Virus record (IMG/VR): IMGVR_UViG_3300025151_000180
Location: 1-30,576 of that record
DNA: 30,576 bases
Reading direction: 5' to 3' (one strand)
Origin: a virus
The translations under genes and the position numbers were made by a program. Of the stretch, positions 2,761-19,530 are shown piece by piece. Positions within the stretch are counted from its first letter, which is position 1, and every line of letters starts with the position of its first letter. The notes under the pieces are model-generated. The model did no database searches and had not been told where the DNA came from. It saw only the letters and a program-made list of their open reading frames with translations.

Positions 2761-3018
2761 TTATTGTATTTTTATTATATTAACTATAGAAACCCCTACA
2801 GCTACAAGACTAGACAAAACGCCTATAAATACCAAAATGCCTTGAGCCTTAAGAACATGTCCTTTCAGTGGTTTAACTTCTTCTTCTAACATGTCCGTTC
2901 TTTTTATATGATACTCTAACAAAGTATTATTTACAGCTAGATTTTTGTCAATGCTATCAATTCTTTCATCTATTCTATCTAGTTTTTCTTCTATCCTGTC
3001 CATATGAGCACCATTCAT
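2761..3018 (-). CDS. coiled-coil plus C-terminal membrane anchor protein (XhlA-like)
   Basis: The 85-residue protein has an acidic heptad-like coiled coil (MDRIEEKLDRIDERIDSIDK, about 6-25, continuing to about 50) followed by one hydrophobic segment at about 61-82 (ILVFIGVLSSLVAVGVSIV). This is the architecture of small XhlA/hemolysin-type phage proteins associated with holins. It sits about 600 bases from the three-helix holin candidate, compatible with a lysis accessory role. The start may be at 3018 or at the internal Met6 (3003); neither has a strong ribosome site. The upstream Cys4 micro-ORF overlaps its start and could provide coupling. Confidence 0.75.
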   Translation of the reverse strand: MNGAHMDRIEEKLDRIDERIDSIDKNLAVNNTLLEYHIKRTDMLEEEVKPLKGHVLKAQGILVFIGVLSSLVAVGVSIVNIIKIQ

Positions 3019-3228: not shown

Positions 3229-3639
3229 TTAATACCCCTTTAAATTTACTCTACAACTAGAAATAGCTCCAGTTCCAGTACTACGATCAAAGAATAGTCT
3301 ACCCCAACGTGCTCCTATGTCTGATAAAGCTATTCGGTAAGTAGCGTCTGTAGCTCCTATAGCAGTAGTAGTGTGAGTTACCCATTTGGTAACTATATCA
3401 TTTTCATTAATTCTAGTTACGCCTTCATCGTCTGCTGAACCTTCATCATTAGAAACTTGAAAAATCATGTTACCTGTTGGACCTGCTGCAAAATGCATAT
3501 GAATTTCACCCATGAATGATCTTTCTAGTGGGATAATTTCACTGTATCTATCAGCATTAAGGTTTGCCGCAGCTGTGGATGTGCTAGGGTCTGCCCCATC
3601 TTTTATTACAAGTTCATAGTTGGTAATTATAGCACTCAT
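3229..3639 (-). CDS. small beta-sandwich virion protein
   Basis: This 136-residue protein is beta-rich and mostly polar, with no membrane segment. The central part (TGNMIFQVSNDEGSADD, about 55-71) and the C-terminal part (RWGRLFFDRSTGTGAISS, about 111-128) follow a pattern common in phage structural proteins: a strand with QVSND, then a late RLFF...GTGxI strand. The 127-residue gene at 11747-12130 shows a similar pattern. A minor virion or fibre-associated role is inferred. It overlaps the start of the holin candidate's end by four bases (3636-3639). Confidence 0.6.
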   Translation of the reverse strand: MSAIITNYELVIKDGADPSTSTAAANLNADRYSEIIPLERSFMGEIHMHFAAGPTGNMIFQVSNDEGSADDEGVTRINENDIVTKWVTHTTTAIGATDATYRIALSDIGARWGRLFFDRSTGTGAISSCRVNLKGY

Positions 3640-3926
3640 TCGTCGCCTCCTAATTTCTTTTTTATTTTGTTTTCAATCATCGGTAGTAGCCTTATCCCAC
3701 AATATCCTATAATATAAGAGATAGCTAAAGCTACTTCAGGAGGGAACTTCCAATAAGCCATGATAGCAGGTATAAAAAATTCTGCTGCTACCCATCCTAC
3801 AAATATTGATAATATTAAATCTAAAGGTTTAATCTTTTTATTAACTGCCCAGTTAGTCACTCCTCCACATCCTGCTGAGAATATGCAGCAAAATTTAGCT
3901 CCAAATGTTGCAATTAACCATTCCAT
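3636..3926 (-). CDS. holin candidate, three transmembrane helices
   Basis: The 96-residue protein has three hydrophobic segments: about 3-26 (WLIATFGAKFCCIFSAGCGG), 36-57 (LDLILSIFVGWVAAEFFIPA) and 64-84 (EVALAISYIIGYCGIRLLPM). It ends with a basic tail (ENKIKKKLGG). Length, three-helix layout and charged C-terminus are those of class I holins, which open the inner membrane at the end of infection. Four cysteines lie in or near the helices. No endolysin lies next to it; the only murein-hydrolase candidate in the window is the 840-residue virion protein. Holin is an inference from topology alone. Confidence 0.6.
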   Translation of the reverse strand: MEWLIATFGAKFCCIFSAGCGGVTNWAVNKKIKPLDLILSIFVGWVAAEFFIPAIMAYWKFPPEVALAISYIIGYCGIRLLPMIENKIKKKLGGDE

Positions 3927-5113: not shown

Positions 5114-8044
5114 CTATTTAAGTTTTCTAATTTTAACATTGGCAAATTTACTTATGTCTCCAGCAGCACTAAAAGTAGAGTCTTCCCCTAATCCGTAAGT
5201 AGATTGAGCTGTAGACGTTCTATACTGAAGGCAATATTCAGTTGAGGCAGTAATATTTAAAACTCCATAAACAGGACCGTTAATAAATCCGTTATTTGCT
5301 ACTGTTTGATTGTTTGTCCCTACAATCGCAATTGAACTATTTGTTTTATCATATAATCTTAATTGAGTATAAGCAGTATTATAAAAAGGAGCAAAAGCTT
5401 CTATTTCATAAGTTCCAGGCTCAAGTGTAAAGTCAGTGTTAGTTCCACCAAGTCCTGTTGTTCCTGTTCCAGACAAGGTAACAAACCAGCTTTCACCATT
5501 AATCGTATTTAGCTCTCTAGGCGTCCAACCTGTAGATACACTATCTCCTCCGTTAGTAGTTCCACCTTTTACGTCTGAAAGAACAGCCACGGCTGGTTTT
5601 ATAATATGAGCCATGTTGGTATTGCTGAAATCTTTTTCTACGAATATGGAAAATAAAGAATTGATACCCCCACTGTAAGAAGTTCCTCCATTGTTAGATG
5701 TTCGAACTTGAAGGTTTTCCCCAGGTTCTAAAACACATACAGCAGTTTGAGAGTAAATTCCAGAATTTCCCTCTAGCTCAGATCCAGTTATTCGATACCC
5801 ATCTAAAGCAGAATTACTAAAAGACACCGTATGGTCTGTTACTGCCGAAGCTGTACCAGCTACTACTCCATAATACCAGTTTGTAGAAGAGTGTCCGTTA
5901 CTCATACTAACAGTAACCTTTACTCTTTGTTGAGCCTGTAGGTTAAAAGCTGTAGTACTTGTTCCTGCTGTAACAGCACAGAGTCCACTTGTGGATAGAG
6001 TGTCAGTATAGACTGTGTTAACATATTTACCATACCCTACGTTTGCTCCATTAAAATAGCCTGAGTATTCTGCATTATTATTTCCAATCTCTACAAGTGG
6101 CAAAGACAACAATGGATTAAAATTTGAGTTCCAGCCTTGGATTGGTATTATAGCACGAAAGGTTAAATTTTCGGTGTTGCCCATGGAGTTTGATGGAATA
6201 CCAATAGTACTACCTGTAGAAGCTCCACCAAAATAAAGTTTATCGGTAGCTGTTACTGTGTTTGCTAAAACTAAAAAGGACCTTCCTGCACCATTTTGCT
6301 GTCCGGCATGTCCAACATTTTGACCAGTAACACTAGTATTACTTTCAATTCCTAATTTAGAGCCGTCTATGTTGTAACCTGAAGGAAGTGTGAAGGAAAT
6401 TGTAGTTCCTGAAGTAGTGCCAGACTTTACATTTCCCATAATGTACATTTTATCGCCAATTCTAGACCATGTTGCTTTGTTCTCGGATACAGTCCCAAGC
6501 CCTGTCCAAGTTGGAGTATAAGAAACTGTGTCGGTAAAAATCTCGTCCTGACTTTCCAAAATTATTGCTTCTGACTCCAATGGTTCAACCATTATATTCA
6601 TACCAGCTTTAAATTCTTCACCACTGTAAACACCACTGTTCGAAGCAGGTCTAATAGTATCACCTTTGTTTAAAATAACTTCAGCAGTACAATTAGCTCC
6701 ATCATTATCTAAGCCTTTTCCAAAAGCTACTCTATTGGCATTTAAGCTAGTGGACATAGGGTCTGTTGAGCTTAAATCATTTATTATAATAGCGACATAG
6801 TTATCGCCACTGGCATTTCCTCTTTGCCAAAGACTCATTGTTACCTTACACCTACAACTTGCTTCAAAGTGAGTGTAGGAGGTAGAGCTTCCATTTTGCC
6901 AAGTTCCGTATTGACCAGTAAAAGTGTTTTGATTTTCTGTTGTGTAATATGGAGTATAGGATTGATAAACATCATCCCAAGTAACGTATCTCGCTATTTC
7001 TGGTTTACCCTTGGAGCTAGCTTGTAAAAATTTATTCTGAGAAACTAATATGCCATCGAAAAATAATTCAATTACATTTGTAGTTGTACTTTTATTACTA
7101 AACCAGACTACAACCTGTTCCGTATCCTCCTCGGTCTTAACTGCAATACTAAAGTCTTTTCCAACTTTGTTTGTATCCGAGTCAGCAGAAGGCAAGAGTC
7201 CTGAAGTTTTATCAGATAACCAACCTGTCACTGCTAAACCTGAAGCTATAACTTGAACATCCTCAGATACTTTAATATTATTGTCTGTACTAGAAATTTC
7301 AGTAATATAGGCTTGAGTAAGAGAGTTTGCTACACCACCTACCGTAGAACCAGTTCCTCCAGTTTCAAACCAAATTTTATCTCCAACAGATAGATTAGTT
7401 TTAGATGTCATTAAGATGTTAGAACCTGCTGATATTGTAGTTCCAGTTGTTAATGTAGAAGCTTGAGTAGTTTTAACACCATTAGATTTATCCCAAACGG
7501 AAACTTGAAAATCTCCATTGGAAGTTGTGGCACTAGCTTCTTCTGTCCTGTATTTAAACTTTATAACTATATTCTGCCCTCTAGTTTGAGCAGGTATGTC
7601 TACAGGAATACCAAAGTAATCATTGTTATTATTAGCTCCTGCTGAAAAATACCTAAAAACTTTGTTGGCATCAAACTCAGTCAGTAGGGCATCCCCACCT
7701 GTGCTAGGAATCTCTAGGGCTCCTAGTAGTCCTGTACCTGTAGAAGTTTCATGAGGAACAGCGTTTGTATTTCCTGCCAGAGTACTAGTAGAGTTTAAAG
7801 CAGAGCTAAAACCTACAGCACTAGTATCAGTTGACATTATAAGTCTTAAAGTCTCTAAGTCTCCTTGAGCATTGTCAAGAGACATCCATGCTGCACCGGA
7901 GTAGTGATAAATACCTTTAGCAATATCACCTGTACCTGTAGCTTGTATAATTTGTCCAGCTTCAGGACTCCCAGGTTTATTGGCTTGAGGTTCAGCTATT
8001 ATGTTTTGTGACTTTATACTAGTCGATTTTATCTCAGTTGCCAT
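5114..8044 (-). CDS. large multi-domain tail fibre / receptor-binding protein
   Basis: The 976-residue product is rich in Thr, Ser, Gly and Asn, and almost all beta. The first 60 residues (MATEIKSTSIKSQNIIAEPQ, then GIYHYSGAAWMSLDNAQGDL) look like a virion-anchor segment. Residues about 110-335 resemble a carbohydrate-binding-type sandwich. About 375-490 and 670-805 look like related jelly-roll units, each with an xxRxKVTxS strand and a later ILxKGDTI or LEPGENL turn. About 508-635 starts YTPTWTGLG, a motif seen in fibre heads. The C-terminal 815-976 has TLEPGTYEIEAFAPF, C1q-like. It probably contacts the host surface. It overlaps a tail assembly chaperone gene by 11 bases. Confidence 0.8.
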   Translation of the reverse strand: MATEIKSTSIKSQNIIAEPQANKPGSPEAGQIIQATGTGDIAKGIYHYSGAAWMSLDNAQGDLETLRLIMSTDTSAVGFSSALNSTSTLAGNTNAVPHETSTGTGLLGALEIPSTGGDALLTEFDANKVFRYFSAGANNNNDYFGIPVDIPAQTRGQNIVIKFKYRTEEASATTSNGDFQVSVWDKSNGVKTTQASTLTTGTTISAGSNILMTSKTNLSVGDKIWFETGGTGSTVGGVANSLTQAYITEISSTDNNIKVSEDVQVIASGLAVTGWLSDKTSGLLPSADSDTNKVGKDFSIAVKTEEDTEQVVVWFSNKSTTTNVIELFFDGILVSQNKFLQASSKGKPEIARYVTWDDVYQSYTPYYTTENQNTFTGQYGTWQNGSSTSYTHFEASCRCKVTMSLWQRGNASGDNYVAIIINDLSSTDPMSTSLNANRVAFGKGLDNDGANCTAEVILNKGDTIRPASNSGVYSGEEFKAGMNIMVEPLESEAIILESQDEIFTDTVSYTPTWTGLGTVSENKATWSRIGDKMYIMGNVKSGTTSGTTISFTLPSGYNIDGSKLGIESNTSVTGQNVGHAGQQNGAGRSFLVLANTVTATDKLYFGGASTGSTIGIPSNSMGNTENLTFRAIIPIQGWNSNFNPLLSLPLVEIGNNNAEYSGYFNGANVGYGKYVNTVYTDTLSTSGLCAVTAGTSTTAFNLQAQQRVKVTVSMSNGHSSTNWYYGVVAGTASAVTDHTVSFSNSALDGYRITGSELEGNSGIYSQTAVCVLEPGENLQVRTSNNGGTSYSGGINSLFSIFVEKDFSNTNMAHIIKPAVAVLSDVKGGTTNGGDSVSTGWTPRELNTINGESWFVTLSGTGTTGLGGTNTDFTLEPGTYEIEAFAPFYNTAYTQLRLYDKTNSSIAIVGTNNQTVANNGFINGPVYGVLNITASTEYCLQYRTSTAQSTYGLGEDSTFSAAGDISKFANVKIRKLK

Positions 8045-8393
8045 CTTTTAGCTCCGGTTTTTTTGGGTAACTTACATTTGAAATATCAAAATCTTCTTTT
8101 TCTAAATATTTACTTGGTAAATCTCTCAGCTCTTGTCTATAAATTTTCCATTCTTCATCATTGGGTAATTGTATGTCTCTGTTTTGAGTCCAATCAGATT
8201 CATTTAATAACATATTTCTCATTTGCCTTAACTCTCTAATTTTAATCTCTTTAGGAATAGGAGGGTATTTAAAGTTTCCATCATCATCTCTAATCATTCC
8301 TGTATTTACACTATCATCTACTTCAATAGAATTAGGATATTCTTTGTTACTTTTAAAAATTACTGTTTCATTTTCTATTATAACATAAGCCAT
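8034..8393 (-). CDS. tail fibre assembly chaperone-like protein
   Basis: The 119-residue protein has at about 51-93 the pattern IRELRQMRNMLLNESDWTQN followed by DEEWKIYRQELRDLPSKY. The R..R...L..(T/S)DW.Q, then W..YRQ.LRDLP signature belongs to phage tail assembly chaperones (Phage_tail_APC family), which help fibres trimerise or attach. The N-terminal part (MAYVIIENETVIFKSNKEYP) is a small beta region typical of these proteins. It lies directly upstream of, and overlaps, the 976-residue fibre gene, which is therefore its likely client. Confidence 0.8.
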   Translation of the reverse strand: MAYVIIENETVIFKSNKEYPNSIEVDDSVNTGMIRDDDGNFKYPPIPKEIKIRELRQMRNMLLNESDWTQNRDIQLPNDEEWKIYRQELRDLPSKYLEKEDFDISNVSYPKKPELKDGN

Positions 8394-12192: not shown

Positions 12193-14550
12193 TTATGATC
12201 TATTCAAATCTCTACGATTACTTACTTTTTCTAGATCGGTGGCTTGGGACTCTGCTATATCTAATTGCTTCGCTGCGGCAGCAGTAATAGTTCCTCCTGC
12301 CTGAGATACTTGAGCTTCTTTATAAAAAGACTGTAAACCTTGTATGGACATTGGTTCCAAGGATAGATCCGTAGGAAGGTCCATAAGTATGCCTAATTGT
12401 AGTCTTTGTTTATATGTAGTTTCTCCTCCAGATTTTTCTAAAGAATCATACACCTTAGACTGTATTTCAGCATATAAGTTTGGATAAACATACCTTACAG
12501 CTTCAATTCCTTCTCTACTCAAGACTCCGCCATTAAGATCTTTCATAACTGACATTGGGTTTTGTACAGCTTGAACATATCTTTTAAATTTATAGATTTC
12601 TTGATCAGATATAGGATAGCTCTTTTTTATAAATGGGTTAACATTTTGTGTTTTTCTAGGAAGTTTGGAGTCTAAAAATACAAAGGCTCTACCAGCAACC
12701 TGTCTAAGTTGTTGATATGTTTGAGGAGCACTAGACTGTAAGTTAGCATCCATCATAAGTTTACTCATGTAAACAGGATTGTCTTTTATTTTGTCTATAT
12801 TATCAGCCATGTTTTTTATGGCTTCTCTCTCATCTTTTGGTCTTCCTATGGCTATTTCGTTTTCCGTTTTTCTAGCCAGTGGATTGCCAGTCAAAAGGGT
12901 AGCAGATAGGGCAGGTAATTTGTCAAACTTCTTACCTTTGAAAAACTTACTTATTGAACTAGATATTTTTTGTTGAACTCTAACATTACTTCTTTCTATA
13001 TCAGTTAAGACCATGAGCTTATTTTTTAAGTCAGACCTTGCAAAGGCAGAAGTCATAGCTGCTGCCCCTGCTGCACTAACAGGATCAACTCCAGCACCAA
13101 AAGCACCTAGCCCAAAGAATATGTCTCTTAGTCTAGGGAAGTTGGTTTGACCACCAATTTTTTTGTTAAATTCTTTTACAAAAGTTACTAAACTACTGTA
13201 ATCTGTCAACTCCTGTGATAATTGTTTACCCAGAGGAGAGTCAACTTTTCCTGCAAAATCTACCAATTCGTCTCTTACAGCTTTACCCATGACCCTATTT
13301 ATATCATCTTTTACTGTGGGCATTCCAGTTTTGTCATATCTACCGAGTTTATGATATTTAATTTTCATATTTTGTAACTCAGAGGCAGTGTAAGGTTTTT
13401 TATTTAATAAATCTTTTTCAAACAAAGAATTTATTTCATCATCTATCTTTTTTATATAACTAACAGCTTCTTTATTTAAGGCGGAGCCATCTGGTTTTTG
13501 AAATTTTTTCTTCAAACCTTCTAAACTATCTATTTGTTTTTGAGCTACACTAGAGTATGTAGGAAATACTGACTTATCAACTATGTCATCATCCATAGCT
13601 TTGACTGTTTTTCCTATCTTATCGCCTATCTTTTCTAGGTATTTTCTAGAGTTACTTAATAAAGAGGTGTTAGAGGCTAAAGATTTTGCTAAACCCTCAG
13701 ACCTCATGACTTTACCTATTACTTCTGGCATGTTTTTAGCCATAACAGGTTGTTCTAATATTATTTTTTCTATCTTATCGTCTGCAAACCCTGCAAGTTT
13801 CATAGCATTATAGGTAGGGTTGGTCATATTTTGTCTAAAGTTATCTATCTTTTCAACGCCCATTCCAACTATCTTGCTTCCTTTTATTTTAGGAACAACG
13901 ATAGAAACTGATTGTCCTATGCCTCCTAGAGAACCTCCTACAAGACCACCAAATAAGGCACCTTTTCCTCCATAAGCTGCTAGGTTTTCTGCATTAAACT
14001 CTGCATTACCTAAGGCATTTTCTTCTATTAGTTCGCCAACTCCATAAAAAGTACCTTCTACTGCTGAGCCTGCACCTTTTTCTACACTCTTCTTTAGAAC
14101 GTCTCTAGCAAATTTTTTCTTTCCACTGTCTTTGATTAATTTTTTAAGACCTGAAGCAGTTAGTTTTTCAACAGTTGTACCTGCTTTAGCTGCCGTAGCT
14201 ATACCTTTTCCAGCTACGCCTGCACCTTTTGCTAGTAGTGAACTACCTCCAGACAATAAAGCTGGTCCCACTATACCTGCTATCTCTCCACCTAAAGCAG
14301 AAAATTCATTTCTTTTACGTCTTTCTCTTAAAGCTTGTTTAAAATCATCACCTAAAGCTGCATAGGCTTGATCACTAAGTCCAAAAGTAGCCGATGATGC
14401 AGCAGATTCTAAGAATGTTCTCAGACCAGAATCTCCATACTTTTTATCCATCTCTACGTTTTTTTCAACAAAATCTATCTGTTCCTCTGATAATGGACCT
14501 TCAACTTTGTTAAAACTTTTAAGATATTCTTTTTCTTTTTCTGATATCAT
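12193..14550 (-). CDS. internal virion / DNA ejection protein (785 residues)
   Basis: The N-terminal third contains FLESAASSATFGLSDQAYAA near 46-65 and Gly/Ala-rich hydrophobic stretches around 85-115 (LGGEIAGIVGPALLSGGSSL) and 192-220 (YGGKGALFGGLVGGSLGGIG). These can insert in membranes. The remainder is mainly alpha-helical, with a further hydrophobic patch near residue 480-500 (GLGAFGAGVDPVSAAGAAAM). Length, helix content and Gly/Ala hydrophobic segments match the ejected internal proteins of podoviruses that form the channel across the host envelope. It is the last of three such large genes in a row. The start is ATG at 14550, seven bases from the end of the previous gene. Confidence 0.7.
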   Translation of the reverse strand: MISEKEKEYLKSFNKVEGPLSEEQIDFVEKNVEMDKKYGDSGLRTFLESAASSATFGLSDQAYAALGDDFKQALRERRKRNEFSALGGEIAGIVGPALLSGGSSLLAKGAGVAGKGIATAAKAGTTVEKLTASGLKKLIKDSGKKKFARDVLKKSVEKGAGSAVEGTFYGVGELIEENALGNAEFNAENLAAYGGKGALFGGLVGGSLGGIGQSVSIVVPKIKGSKIVGMGVEKIDNFRQNMTNPTYNAMKLAGFADDKIEKIILEQPVMAKNMPEVIGKVMRSEGLAKSLASNTSLLSNSRKYLEKIGDKIGKTVKAMDDDIVDKSVFPTYSSVAQKQIDSLEGLKKKFQKPDGSALNKEAVSYIKKIDDEINSLFEKDLLNKKPYTASELQNMKIKYHKLGRYDKTGMPTVKDDINRVMGKAVRDELVDFAGKVDSPLGKQLSQELTDYSSLVTFVKEFNKKIGGQTNFPRLRDIFFGLGAFGAGVDPVSAAGAAAMTSAFARSDLKNKLMVLTDIERSNVRVQQKISSSISKFFKGKKFDKLPALSATLLTGNPLARKTENEIAIGRPKDEREAIKNMADNIDKIKDNPVYMSKLMMDANLQSSAPQTYQQLRQVAGRAFVFLDSKLPRKTQNVNPFIKKSYPISDQEIYKFKRYVQAVQNPMSVMKDLNGGVLSREGIEAVRYVYPNLYAEIQSKVYDSLEKSGGETTYKQRLQLGILMDLPTDLSLEPMSIQGLQSFYKEAQVSQAGGTITAAAAKQLDIAESQATDLEKVSNRRDLNRS

Positions 14551-14557
14551 AAATCAC

Positions 14558-17080
14558 CTAAATTGGTAAAGGCTCATTCATATTCCATATAGTACCAGGC
14601 TTAGCTCCTGCTTTTTGAGCGTCTATCTCTCCTTTTATCAGTCCATCAATAACACTTCTTCTGTTTTTAGCATTGTCCTGTAAACGTCTTCTACTTAATA
14701 TTTGTTGTATTCTCAAGTCATTTGGAGTTTTTTGTATAGCTATACCGTCTCTTCTAAGTTTATCTCTAACTCCATAATTAAGTTTCATAATTAGTTTAAG
14801 AATTTTAGGTTTTTCCCTTGAGTCTGTTGTTAAAAGAGCGTTAGGGTCTCCAAGAATTCTTTTAGCTTGAGCCCTTTCTTGATCAGTCATAACACCTGGA
14901 CCAAAGAACTCAATTCTTAGTTTACCTACTAGTCTATCTCTAAGAGATTGAGCCGCAGCAGCGTCAATAGAAAAAATAGGAACTGCTTGATCTACTATAC
15001 TAATTTTATCAAAATAACTATATAAATCAGTAAGACCGTCTATAGAATCTTGAGCGTCTGCTAAGTATGCCTTAACTTTGTTTATATTAGAAGGACCACC
15101 TCTTACATAGTAGTTTAGACCATTTCTACCTTTAATCATGGAATCTCTTAATTTTAGTTTACGATATTTAGAGTCAAACTTAGACAGTTCTTCATCTGTT
15201 ATACCTCTAGTATTTACAATCCGGTTTACGTTTGTTAACTGTTGTTCATCTTGTAGTTTTTTAAGTTCTTTGATTCCTGCTGTTCTTTGTTTTTGAAAAA
15301 TTTCTAAAAGTCTAATTTTTTGTTCTTCATTCTTAGTAGACATGGCTAGTTTTTTGGCTATTTGACCAACCTTGAATTTAGCAGCAGCAAGCTTTCTACC
15401 TTCGTCTTCTAATCCTAGTTGTTGAGCTTTTATATCTTTTTCTACTTCTCTATCTAATCTTTGTACAAAAGTGTTAGGAGTGCCATATTTGTAGGAACCA
15501 TAGGCACCTGCTGCTAGACCAACAAGACTTACTATTTTATTAAAAGTACTCATATTTTTAAAAAATCTTTTTGGGTCTACAGATTGTGCTGCTTTTTCAG
15601 CTTGCACTATAGAGTCGTCTAAGGCTTTTCTAAGCTCAGCTTCATCTATTTCTTTTTGGCTTCTGTCTTCTACTTTTGTTCTATTAAGTTGTTGAAACTT
15701 TTTTCTTTGTTTTTCAGCTTCATCTTTTTGTCTTTTAGCTTCTTCTCTTTGTTCTTGGTCTCTATCTAACTCAGCTAATCTTTTTAGAGACATTCCATCA
15801 AATTCTTTTTTTCTCCTAGACAATTCTCTGGTAACAGCAGGTTCTTGTGGTTGTCCAGGGACTTTTTTACTCATTAGTTCGTCTACACTCATTTGAGATA
15901 GTTGGTATTCTCTAACACCTTGAAAATCTGGAGACCTTTCTCTTTTTGGAAAAGGGTCTGGTCTTGATTCTATTTCATCTACTTCTGTTTCAGTAATGTC
16001 TTCTATCATGAAATCTTGTGGCTCATTTTGTTTAGGTAAAAGGTAGTCTGGAAGGGCATCAACTTCTCCTCCGTTTCGGTACCTAACTTCTCCACCTTCA
16101 GCTGCTAACATCATTTTATCTTTTTCTTGTCTTTCCGCCATATCAAATTCATCTGTTCCTTTAGCATATACACCAAAGGGAACTGATTGATCCATTGGTA
16201 TTGTTTCTTCTAGTTGTATGTCTTCTGTTTTTATTTCTTGTTCAGGTTGTTTTGCCTCTTCTATAATTTCTTGTTGTGCTTTAGCCATGTCTTCATCTTT
16301 AGACCGTTCAAACTCTTCTGGACTGTCAAACTTCTGATCATCTACAAATTTAAATTTTTCTTCAAACTCATCCATAGACTCACCTTTTTCTAAAGTGAGA
16401 TATCTTTTACCTCTCCAAGTAAATTCTCTTTTACCTTCTGCTCTAGCTTCTTTGAAAGCTTGTGCAAATGGTTTAGAGTCTTGAGGAAGTCTAGAGGGTT
16501 TATCATCCTCTAGATAACTTTTCTTTTGTTCTAGAAATCCTTTAATGTTTTTTTGTAATCTTTTTAAATTAGGGTCTTTTGATTTAAAATGAGTCGCTAT
16601 CCCTTCCATAGCAACATCAGGAGAAGAGTTCCAATAAGCATAATATTCATGGTCAGCAGGTTTTCTATTAAAAATTTTTTTTACATAGTTGTCAGCCATT
16701 CGTGTAGTGTCTTTTAGTAAAGCTACTAATAACTTATCTTGGATTTCCTCATTCTCTACTAACCATGTTGAATACTCTGAAACTTGATTTTTACCTGGAG
16801 TAGTTTTTAAACTTTTTATTTTATCATAAAGTTTTTTATTAGCTAAAAGACCCTTTGGCTTAGTTAATAATAAAGCCGTGTTCTTATGCAAGTGTAAATC
16901 TCCACCTGACTTACCTTGGTCTCCTGCAAGTAATATTCCATTCTGTGATTCTCTTTTTTGAAACTTTAATATTCTTTCTAGTGGAACACCACTAAGTTTA
17001 GCAAGTTTCTTCATTCGATCTAAATTTTTAGCCATGGCTGTACTCCCTAATAGTACAAAAATTAAAATCGCTCTTAGCAC
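14558..17080 (-). CDS. internal virion protein with putative N-terminal murein transglycosylase domain
   Basis: The 840-residue protein has near its N-terminus KFQKRESQNG (Glu44) followed by AGDQGKSGGDLHLHKNTA (52-69) and, at 143-154, DHEYYAYWNSSP. This resembles a divergent lysozyme/SLT fold, with a catalytic Glu-Ser, a GDxGKSxG turn and a YxxYNxGP-like segment. The rest is charged coiled coil, with GG elements near 329-338 and one hydrophobic segment at about 513-533. Two starts are credible: GTG at 17080 (AGGAG, eight-base spacer) gives a signal-peptide-like leader, MLRAILIFVLLGSTAMA, and ATG at 17035 (GGGAG, seven-base spacer) starts right at MAKNLDRMKK. It would digest peptidoglycan during DNA entry. 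Confidence 0.65.
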   Translation of the reverse strand: MLRAILIFVLLGSTAMAKNLDRMKKLAKLSGVPLERILKFQKRESQNGILLAGDQGKSGGDLHLHKNTALLLTKPKGLLANKKLYDKIKSLKTTPGKNQVSEYSTWLVENEEIQDKLLVALLKDTTRMADNYVKKIFNRKPADHEYYAYWNSSPDVAMEGIATHFKSKDPNLKRLQKNIKGFLEQKKSYLEDDKPSRLPQDSKPFAQAFKEARAEGKREFTWRGKRYLTLEKGESMDEFEEKFKFVDDQKFDSPEEFERSKDEDMAKAQQEIIEEAKQPEQEIKTEDIQLEETIPMDQSVPFGVYAKGTDEFDMAERQEKDKMMLAAEGGEVRYRNGGEVDALPDYLLPKQNEPQDFMIEDITETEVDEIESRPDPFPKRERSPDFQGVREYQLSQMSVDELMSKKVPGQPQEPAVTRELSRRKKEFDGMSLKRLAELDRDQEQREEAKRQKDEAEKQRKKFQQLNRTKVEDRSQKEIDEAELRKALDDSIVQAEKAAQSVDPKRFFKNMSTFNKIVSLVGLAAGAYGSYKYGTPNTFVQRLDREVEKDIKAQQLGLEDEGRKLAAAKFKVGQIAKKLAMSTKNEEQKIRLLEIFQKQRTAGIKELKKLQDEQQLTNVNRIVNTRGITDEELSKFDSKYRKLKLRDSMIKGRNGLNYYVRGGPSNINKVKAYLADAQDSIDGLTDLYSYFDKISIVDQAVPIFSIDAAAAQSLRDRLVGKLRIEFFGPGVMTDQERAQAKRILGDPNALLTTDSREKPKILKLIMKLNYGVRDKLRRDGIAIQKTPNDLRIQQILSRRRLQDNAKNRRSVIDGLIKGEIDAQKAGAKPGTIWNMNEPLPI

Positions 17081-17100
17081 TAATTACTCTCCTGTTCATG

Positions 17101-19530
17101 TTACTTACCTACCTTTCTTTCCAGTTCTTCAATCCGTCTCATGAGGTCACTCTGAGCCGAGACCACTGCTCCATAGCCAGAAGAAGGCATCTTGAATTGG
17201 TCTTTTACCACACCTGGACCCTTCATGTCAACAGCACCACCCATTTGGAAGTGTCTGAATTTACGTCTAGCTCCACCATGTTTTGCATCTTTGGCAGCTT
17301 TATCGTGAAATATTGATTCTGATTCATAGCCTATGGCTTCCTTAAAAGCTTTCTTAGGTCTAGCGTAGGCTTCTCCACCCTCTGCAAATTTTTCGACTTT
17401 ACCCATTTTATCTTGTAATTTATATAAAAAATCTACACCCTTAGCTCTTTGTTCTTCTTTGCCTTTTGCACCCATGGACTTACCTAACCCACGTACAGCA
17501 GAAGCTTTAACTACAAACTCTCCATCAGATAGTCTAGCAGGTATGGAATCTGATGTTTCGGTACCTGGTCCAGATACAAACCCACCTTCTGCTCCACCAA
17601 ATATGTTACCAAAATCAAACGTGCCTAATATGTCTTCTGCTTTATTTAACCCAGTGGACACTGCTTCCAAACCTTTAAGCCAGCCTGGTTTATCAGAGGC
17701 AGAAGACACTACTCCTTTTCCAGATGCTAACTTCTGTCTTTCAAGTGCATTTTGTCTATCTTTCTCAGCTTCACTAAGACCTTGCTGTTCTTTTCTTCTA
17801 GTCTCACGTTCTTTCATCAAGGCTATTTGAACTTGTGGAGCAAATTCTCTATCAAATCTTTCTTGTGATCTTTGTAGTAATCTAGCCTTTTGACCAGGGC
17901 TTACACCTCTTAGTCCTCTTATTGAAGCTAGTTGTTGAGCTAAGCTTCTTTCTCTAATCATTTGAGCTTCTTTTTTAACTATAGAATCTCCAACTTCATC
18001 TGGAGTTAGTTGTTCAACAGGTTTTGGGGCTGGAGCAGGAGCTGGAGCTGGAGCTGGAGCAGCAGCAACAGGAGGAGCAGCAGGAGCAGGAGCAGATTTA
18101 GGTTCTCCTCTACGAACAGGTGGAGCTACTGAAGGTTTTGGCTCCTTAGCTTTTGTTATTTTTTCTTCCTCAATAGAAATGTCTTCTTGAGCTTCTTCCA
18201 TTGTAGTAGGGTCAGATACTTTTTTATTTATAAATTCTGCTATATTTTTTACAGGAGCACCTACCCCCCCTGGCAATAAGCCTAGAGCTTTTATAAAATT
18301 TCTTCTAGTTAAGACAGACTTTCTAGGTATTTTTTCATTTCCTGTTAGTGCTCCATACTCTTGAGCACTTATTAAACCCTTTTCATAATCCAACAAAGCC
18401 ATTCTATCTCTTTTACGATTTTGAGATTCAACATATGCTTCTTCAAACCTTCGTTGGTCTTCTGCTATTTCTTCAGGCGTTTTTTCTTCTTGTGCATCTT
18501 TAAAAGCTTCAAATTCTTCTTCACTTCCAAATCTAGGGTCTGCTGCCATTTGTTCTCGAAGCTCTCTATCAGCTAAAGCTTTTCTTATTCCAACTTGGTC
18601 TGGAGCATCAGCTTCTATTAGTCTTTCTGTTTCTGCTTTTTTTCTACGTTTTAAGTCTTCTCTTCTTAAATCTTCAGATAACTCTCTATCTTCTATAGCT
18701 TTTTGAAAGTCAAAGCCTTCTTCTCTTAGTTGTCTACCAAAAGAACTTTGTTCTTCTTCTAATTTTCTTTTTTCTCTCATTTTATCAGTAAATTGACCTA
18801 TTTCTTGATCTCTTTGTAAAGCATCAGTAAACTTATCTGCTCTATCTTTACGTTCTTTTTCCAACCTGTCTTGTCTCATTTGACCTGTAAAGTCAGCTGC
18901 TTCTTGGTCTCTTTGCATAGCATCAGTAAACCGATCTCCTCTTTCTTTTCTTATTTCATCAGGAACCTCACCCATCCTTCTATCTCTAACTAAAGAATCA
19001 GTGAACCTATCTGCTCTAACCTTACGTTCTTGTTCATCCATTTGTTGAATAGCAGCTTGATCAGCTTCTCTAGCTTTTCTAAGTTGAGCAGCTTTTGCAA
19101 CAGCTTCAGCTTTTACTTTAGCTTCTTGTTTTTGTTGTTCTTCTTTTCTTCTTTGAGCAGCTTTTGCCATGGCTTCAGCTTTTGCCTTAGCTTGTTGTCT
19201 TTGCTGGTCTTCCTTTCTTTTTTGTTCAGCTTTTGCCTTAGCTTCAGCAGCAGCTTGTTGTTTTTGTCTTTCAATACCTAATTGTGTCTGTGCAGTTTCC
19301 CTTCTTCCTTTATCAACTACAGATTTTGCTTCTGCCTCTTGTTGTTTTTTTCTAAAAGCATCGGTTTGTAACTGAGCCTCTCTTTGTTGAGAAGACTGTT
19401 CTCCAGTTCCACCTTTACCACCTCCACCACGACTGCCACTGCCGCTGGAGCCGTTACCGCCGCCACCTTTGAAACATTTCAGAGGTCCGACTGCTATAAG
19501 TTTAGGTCCTTTTAAAATTGGTTTTTTCAT
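17101..19530 (-). CDS. coiled-coil internal virion protein with Gly-rich N-terminus
   Basis: The 809-residue protein has a Gly/Ser-rich region (about 21-45), then about 350 residues of Ala/Lys/Glu/Gln/Arg coiled coil. This includes three repeats of a D(R/K)FTD(S/A)xxRD unit at about 174-250. TRRNFIKALGLLPGG lies at 408-422, and an Ala-Pro linker at about 480-503. The C-terminal part has EGGFVSGPGTETSDSIPARL followed by SDGEFVVKASAV (649-680), a motif common near the end of large phage tail and ejection proteins. GG-turn segments and a final short coiled coil follow. It is the first of three large helical genes and probably part of the injected or internal complex. It overlaps the acetyltransferase gene by four bases. 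Confidence 0.65.
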   Translation of the reverse strand: MKKPILKGPKLIAVGPLKCFKGGGGNGSSGSGSRGGGGKGGTGEQSSQQREAQLQTDAFRKKQQEAEAKSVVDKGRRETAQTQLGIERQKQQAAAEAKAKAEQKRKEDQQRQQAKAKAEAMAKAAQRRKEEQQKQEAKVKAEAVAKAAQLRKAREADQAAIQQMDEQERKVRADRFTDSLVRDRRMGEVPDEIRKERGDRFTDAMQRDQEAADFTGQMRQDRLEKERKDRADKFTDALQRDQEIGQFTDKMREKRKLEEEQSSFGRQLREEGFDFQKAIEDRELSEDLRREDLKRRKKAETERLIEADAPDQVGIRKALADRELREQMAADPRFGSEEEFEAFKDAQEEKTPEEIAEDQRRFEEAYVESQNRKRDRMALLDYEKGLISAQEYGALTGNEKIPRKSVLTRRNFIKALGLLPGGVGAPVKNIAEFINKKVSDPTTMEEAQEDISIEEEKITKAKEPKPSVAPPVRRGEPKSAPAPAAPPVAAAPAPAPAPAPAPKPVEQLTPDEVGDSIVKKEAQMIRERSLAQQLASIRGLRGVSPGQKARLLQRSQERFDREFAPQVQIALMKERETRRKEQQGLSEAEKDRQNALERQKLASGKGVVSSASDKPGWLKGLEAVSTGLNKAEDILGTFDFGNIFGGAEGGFVSGPGTETSDSIPARLSDGEFVVKASAVRGLGKSMGAKGKEEQRAKGVDFLYKLQDKMGKVEKFAEGGEAYARPKKAFKEAIGYESESIFHDKAAKDAKHGGARRKFRHFQMGGAVDMKGPGVVKDQFKMPSSGYGAVVSAQSDLMRRIEELERKVGK
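18019..18099 (-). repeat. Ala-Pro linker repeat
   Basis: This low-complexity GCTCC/AGC-type DNA encodes an Ala/Pro-alternating stretch (residues about 478-504 of the 809-residue protein). It is GC-richer than its surroundings and is likely an extended spacer between the coiled-coil half and the C-terminal half of the protein. Confidence 0.7.
18766..19017 (-). repeat. three degenerate FTD coding repeats
   Basis: Three units of about 26-33 residues in the 809-residue protein share R(A/G)D(R/K)FTD(S/A)(L/M)xRD, and two of them also share a following DFTGQMR or QFTDKMR element. The copies differ from one another, so this is an old expansion inside a coiled-coil region. Confidence 0.65.

What the first reader, a model, noticed from the sequence alone, without database searches (positions are those of the whole stretch)
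17035..17080. Two credible starts that add or remove a signal peptide on a virion murein hydrolase
GTG at 17080 has AGGAG and yields MLRAILIFVLLGSTAMA, a near-classic signal peptide with an AMA cleavage site. ATG at 17035 has its own GGGAG and starts right after it. Use of both would give a cytoplasmic form for packaging in virions and an exported form that could act as the lysis enzyme. No other endolysin is visible in this window.
Basis: partly seen in the sequence, partly recalled or inferred. Interest (0 to 1): 0.6.

Follow-up and report, generated by a model that had tools for sequence, protein, structure and literature searches.

The report
Phage wall-cutting protein with two starts
A phage gene for a wall-cutting protein that is probably carried in the virus particle has two evolutionarily kept start sites, one adding an export signal and one leaving it off, which suggests that a single enzyme may open the cell wall both on the way in and on the way out.

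Summary
The ORF at 14558-17080 (-) has a GTG start (17080) giving MLRAILIFVLLGSTAMA and an in-frame ATG (17035) with its own GGGAG. Nine related uncultured phage contigs were compared. Six of them plus the window (seven genes, about four sequence lineages) keep the leader, although the N-terminal domain behind it differs between them. The leader varies like a translated hydrophobic signal. All seven also keep an internal ATG with an unusually strong ribosome site; in L016 the ATG at the cleavage site is lost, but an ATG 39 nt further on carries AAGGAG. Of 1,392 internal in-frame ATGs in these phages only 11 have so strong a site, and 7 are these. Three relatives lack the leader.

The enzyme reading is moderately supported: a model of the window domain best matches phiKZ gp144 lytic transglycosylase, and relatives carry Phage_lysozyme2 or SLT domains behind the same leader. 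Two contigs of one relative together span its genome, and no separate endolysin was recognised there. A distant relative with separate hydrolases has neither leader nor recognised hydrolase domain on this protein.

That one form is packaged and the other lyses the cell is inferred, not shown.

The parts
17101..19530 (-). upstream gene, 809 aa, tape-measure-like; its stop codon abuts the leader region
   Evidence: PHROG 6090 tape measure E 8e-11, on a short C-terminal stretch only
17028..17099 (-). short out-of-frame ORF (23 codons) starting 1 nt after the upstream stop and ending over the internal ATG (ATGGCTAA)
   Evidence: In all seven leader-bearing genes its stop lies within -7 to +8 nt of the internal ATG; role inferred (reinitiation), may be chance
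17089..17093 (-). AGGAG ribosome site of the GTG start
   Evidence: -7.8 kcal/mol
17030..17080 (-). signal-peptide leader MLRAILIFVLLGSTAMA, GTG start at 17080
   Evidence: Kept in 7 genes / about 4 lineages; frame-specific amino-acid constraint; rule-based SP screen
17043..17047 (-). GGGAG ribosome site of the internal start, inside the leader codons G-S
   Evidence: -8.4 kcal/mol
14558..17035 (-). leaderless ORF from internal ATG 17035, 825 aa
16526..17029 (-). N-terminal lytic-transglycosylase-like domain (invariant E44-S45 of the long form)
   Evidence: AlphaFold model pTM 0.69; best PDB match phiKZ gp144 3bkh, prob 0.99, E 0.04
14558..16483 (-). C-terminal part, about 640 aa; at least its last 350 aa are shared by all relatives whatever the N-terminal domain
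12193..14550 (-). downstream 785-aa protein, likely partner ejection protein
   Evidence: Conserved neighbour in every relative; function from gene order only
3636..3926 (-). probable holin
   Evidence: PHROG 2359 holin E 9e-7
2761..3018 (-). XhlA-like small membrane protein
   Evidence: Weak XhlA match E 0.0015, below Pfam cut-off; homologue in relatives

Best explanation
The gene makes two nearly identical proteins from two ribosome sites. The GTG form carries a cleavable Sec signal, so its N-terminal murein hydrolase domain is sent to the periplasm late in infection and serves as the lysis enzyme, with the holin setting the timing. The ATG form, which starts at the signal-peptidase site, stays in the cytoplasm and is built into the virion as the ejection protein that cuts the wall on entry. 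Shown: the two start sites, their conservation, the leader's translated-like evolution, and the lack of a recognised endolysin in one relative's genome. Inferred: that both forms are made, that the signal is cleaved, and which form does which job. A short out-of-frame ORF that ends at the internal ATG may feed ribosomes to the leaderless start (speculative).
For: The leader is kept in seven genes while the domain behind it changes: transglycosylase-like (window, L003, L004, L009), Phage_lysozyme2 (L002, E 1e-13), SLT (L016, E 2e-4), and an unassigned domain in L023 that looks M15-like by eye. Between the four lineages 7-16 of 48 bases differ with no indel or stop; amino-acid similarity in the leader frame beats random placement of the changes (p 0.001-0.035 per pair) and exceeds both other frames. 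Internal start: 7 of the 11 strongest internal ATG sites among 1,392 are this one. L016 lost the cleavage-site ATG but has AAGGAG-N9-ATG at codon 29, before its SLT domain. Two overlapping contigs that span one relative's genome hold no other recognised wall hydrolase among 26 non-structural or unassigned proteins scanned. Distant G011 has separate M15_3 and SLT enzymes, and its positional homologue has no leader and no recognised hydrolase domain.
Against: No expression data. Three relatives lack the leader, so an exported form is not essential in the group. The whole 840-aa protein, not just the enzyme, would be exported. The window's domain is not recognised by any sequence family. A novel endolysin among the unassigned early proteins cannot be excluded. 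Four of the seven leaders are nearly identical at DNA level, so independence is limited to about four lineages.
Confidence: 0.45

Rival explanations
1. Both forms are made, but the exported form is not the lysis enzyme: it acts in the producing cell on another wall task (loosening the wall, blocking superinfection, staging assembly at the membrane), and an unrecognised endolysin does the lysis.
For: Two early proteins of G010 also have signal-like N-termini with no known family, and many early proteins are unassigned. Leaderless relatives must lyse by some other route.
Against: No hydrolase family found there; the only recognised or modelled wall hydrolase in these genomes is this protein.
Confidence: 0.22
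2. Only the long form matters: the virion protein is made with a leader that targets the membrane or is removed during assembly (I recall a processed leader for the P22 ejection protein gp7, not checked here), and the internal ATG is incidental because ATG and GGG AGT fit the A-M-A and G-S residues of the signal.
For: The internal ATG sits in the cleavage motif, so its conservation is partly explained by the protein; L016 lost it there.
Against: GGG is only about 7% of glycine codons; the site strength is rare genome-wide and L016 has an equally strong one elsewhere. Leaderless relatives show that the protein can do without a leader.
Confidence: 0.18
3. Only the short form is functional; the upstream codons are an untranslated or regulatory stretch.
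For: Leaderless relatives L014, L015, L024; strong internal site; short overlapping ORF ends at the internal ATG.
Against: Frame-specific constraint and signal-peptide form kept across about four lineages; the start codon changed from GTG to ATG in L016 at the same place.
Confidence: 0.1

Closest known systems
T7 gp16-type ejection proteins with N-terminal transglycosylase (PMC8954989)
   Same: Long chain, murein-cutting domain at the N-terminus, domain mosaicism, neighbours of other long ejection-type proteins
   Different: As far as I know T7 gp16 has no signal peptide or second start; here packaging is not shown and no sequence homology to gp16 was found
Phage phi6 P5 and phiYY Ply17 (PMC6088179)
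   Same: One lytic enzyme reported to serve both entry and lysis; phi6 lysin is the second structural match of the window domain
   Different: dsRNA enveloped phages; no dual-start compartment choice described in the passages read
fOg44 Lys44 endolysin with a Sec signal peptide (PMC6116005)
   Same: Exported wall hydrolase with a typical signal peptide
   Different: A dedicated endolysin, not an ejection-type protein; no second start described there
Ms6 LysA and other endolysins with in-frame internal starts (PMC6116005, PMC3314691, PMC9430671)
   Same: Two products from one lysin gene by an internal start
   Different: There the second start shortens the enzyme itself or yields a subunit; here it removes only the export signal
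phiKZ gp144 lytic transglycosylase (PDB 3bkh)
   Same: Best fold match of the window domain
   Different: Only 16% identity, E 0.04, TM-score 0.46

Membership tests
Sec signal peptide | Positive n-region, hydrophobic core, small residues at -3 and -1 | tested here: met
   R3/K3, core of about 9 residues, AMA/AIA/AMS; 7 of the 9 passing ORFs among 270 are this leader; rule-based only
Sec signal peptide | Export and cleavage | not testable with these tools
   Needs N-terminal sequencing or PhoA fusion
Lytic transglycosylase / lysozyme-like | Sequence family match | tested here: not met
   No Pfam or PHROG hydrolase hit for the window domain; relatives L002 and L016 do match
Lytic transglycosylase / lysozyme-like | Fold | tested here: inconclusive
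   phiKZ gp144 prob 0.99 but E 0.04, TM 0.46; model pLDDT 72 with residues 42-61 below 50
Lytic transglycosylase / lysozyme-like | Candidate catalytic Glu followed by Ser, invariant | tested here: met
   E44-S45 invariant in four; an RES motif also in L002 and L016; catalysis not tested
Podovirus ejection protein | Long protein in the tail/ejection gene block | tested here: met
   Between the tape-measure-like gene and another conserved 785-aa protein in all relatives
Podovirus ejection protein | Present in virions and ejected | not testable with these tools
   No proteomics
Dual-start (in-frame) phage gene | Second start with a ribosome site above background and conserved | tested here: met
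   7 of the 11 strongest of 1,392 internal ATGs
Dual-start (in-frame) phage gene | Both products made | not testable with these tools
   Needs proteomics or initiation profiling

The most novel reading that the evidence does not exclude
A DNA phage group has dispensed with a separate endolysin: one ejection protein, made with and without an export signal from two starts, cuts the wall on entry from the virion and on exit from the periplasm, and the leader with its built-in second start works as a portable module in front of different hydrolase domains.
Probability: 0.38. Interest if true: 0.82.

Novelty: new variant of a known kind. Interest (0 to 1): 0.64.

Why it matters
It would be a compact solution to needing the same enzyme in two compartments, and would explain how phages without a recognisable endolysin lyse their hosts. 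It also gives a concrete, searchable signature (a signal peptide with a strong ribosome site at the cleavage point) for similar genes elsewhere.

Tried and rejected
Chance extension of the ORF: rejected by the frame test and relatives. Internal ATG explained only by the AMA motif: weakened by L016 and by site rarity. RNA switch at the start region: no consistent structure, only L002 folds better than shuffles. Named phage relatives: none for the 840-aa protein; portal and capsid matches only 21-23% identical. The genome collection scan found no homologue. The PHROG 'endolysin' hit of the upstream gene (phrog_971) is one of several matches to the same C-terminal stretch that also hits tape-measure families, so it was not counted as an enzyme. 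PDB sequence searches gave no useful hit. The window holin was not found in nine related contigs, some of which are fragments. No SignalP was available.

Full report
What was checked. On the minus strand the ORF 14558-17080 opens with GTG at 17080, preceded by an in-frame TAA and by AGGAG; 15 codons later an in-frame ATG at 17035 follows GGGAG. The upstream 809-aa gene ends at 17101. The window is the whole of a 30,576-base virus record.

Relatives. Scans gave nine related contigs. The C-terminal part of the protein is common to them; the N-terminal domain is not. Window, L003, L004 and L009 share one domain. L002 has Phage_lysozyme2 (PF18013, E 1e-13), L016 an SLT domain (E 2e-4), L014 GH108 plus PG_binding_3 (E 7e-15). 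L015 and L023 look M15-like to the eye but matched no such family, and L024 has only a weak M23 match (E 0.017). The leader stands in front of the transglycosylase-like, Phage_lysozyme2, SLT and L023 domains, and is absent in L014, L015 and L024.

Leader. The four distinct sequences are MLRAILIFVLLGSTAMA, MIKAILIFFLLGSTAIA (L016), MLKVILLYLCLGSSAMA (L002) and MLKAIILYLCLGSIAMS (L023). Pairs differ at 7 to 16 of 48 bases without indel or stop; similarity in this frame exceeds random placement of the same number of changes (p 0.001 to 0.035 per pair) and exceeds the other two frames. The pairs are not independent tests. A rule-based signal-peptide screen passes nine of 270 ORFs of the group, seven being this leader.

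Second start. Its ribosome site (-8.4 kcal/mol) is stronger than 24 of 31 window gene starts. Over 11 contigs and 219 genes, 11 of 1,392 internal in-frame ATGs reach this strength and seven of those are in this gene, one in each leader-bearing copy; all other internal ATGs give 4 of 1,385. In six copies it lies at codon 16, in L016 at codon 29 with AAGGAG, after the A-M-A methionine became isoleucine. Either way the product would lack the signal and keep the enzyme domain. Because four of the seven are close relatives, about four lineages, not seven, support this.

Short ORF. An ATG just upstream of the leader start (19 nt before it in six genes, 4 nt in L023) opens a reading frame shifted by one; its stop falls within -7 to +8 nt of the internal ATG in all seven, including L016 where the internal ATG has moved. 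This would suit reinitiation, but overlap with the constrained leader frame makes the significance uncertain. No conserved RNA fold was seen.

Enzyme. The window domain was modelled from four sequences (pLDDT 72, pTM 0.69). The best solved match is phiKZ gp144 lytic transglycosylase (probability 0.99, E 0.04), then phi6 lysin; the leading viral-library matches include several transglycosylases and endolysins. None is below E 0.001, so this is moderate support.

Other lysis genes. The window has a probable holin at 3636-3926 and an XhlA-like protein but no endolysin was recognised. Contigs G002 (L003) and G010 are 99.9% and 99.7% identical over 12.3 and 6.9 kb at both overlaps, so they are one phage and together span its genome. 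Of its non-structural or unassigned proteins, 26 were scanned against Pfam with no wall hydrolase; the DNA polymerase, RNR, ThyX, helicase-like and a few small ones were judged by eye from their sequences and not scanned. Absence is therefore likely, not proven. In distant G011, M15_3 and SLT enzymes are separate genes, and the positional homologue (550 aa, weak match E 0.001) has no recognised hydrolase family and no leader.

Mechanism. The simplest reading that uses all of this is a dual-compartment enzyme. Signal-peptidase cleavage after AMA would leave K18 first; the internal start after Met removal would leave A-K, so the two products would differ by one alanine (inference). A Sec-exported chain should not be available for packaging in the cytoplasm, and a cytoplasmic chain does not reach the wall without a large holin hole, so two starts would serve both needs. 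One enzyme for both entry and lysis is reported for dsRNA phages (PMC6088179), a signal-peptide endolysin for fOg44, and internal starts in endolysins for Ms6 and others (PMC6116005, PMC3314691, PMC9430671). I found no report combining them in an ejection-type protein within the open-access papers searched.

Limits. There are no expression, export, packaging or activity data; the host is unknown; virion location is from gene order.

Noticed in passing
window 16526-17029; L002, L014, L016: The N-terminal wall-hydrolase domain of this protein is exchanged between relatives (transglycosylase-like, Phage_lysozyme2, SLT, GH108) on a common C-terminal part.
   Followed up: yes
L015:3163-6165: The tape-measure-like protein of this relative has a Hint/intein-type segment (PF05203 E 4e-7) and, by eye, an M15-like stretch near its N-terminus.
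   Followed up: no
L056:4587-5024: S-adenosylmethionine lyase family protein (E 2e-18) in the early region, a likely anti-restriction protein.
   Followed up: no
L056:6704-7267 and 7532-8179: Two ClpP-like genes before the terminase; the second begins with a hydrophobic signal-like stretch.
   Followed up: no
L056:3095-3397 and 3479-3814: Two small early proteins with signal-like N-termini and no family; candidates for spanins or other envelope proteins.
   Followed up: partly
window 3636-3926: The probable holin was not found in nine related contigs, so it may be specific to the window's phage (some of these contigs are fragments).
   Followed up: partly
window 17028-17099: Short out-of-frame ORF whose stop overlaps or lies next to the internal start, repeated in all leader-bearing relatives.
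   Followed up: partly
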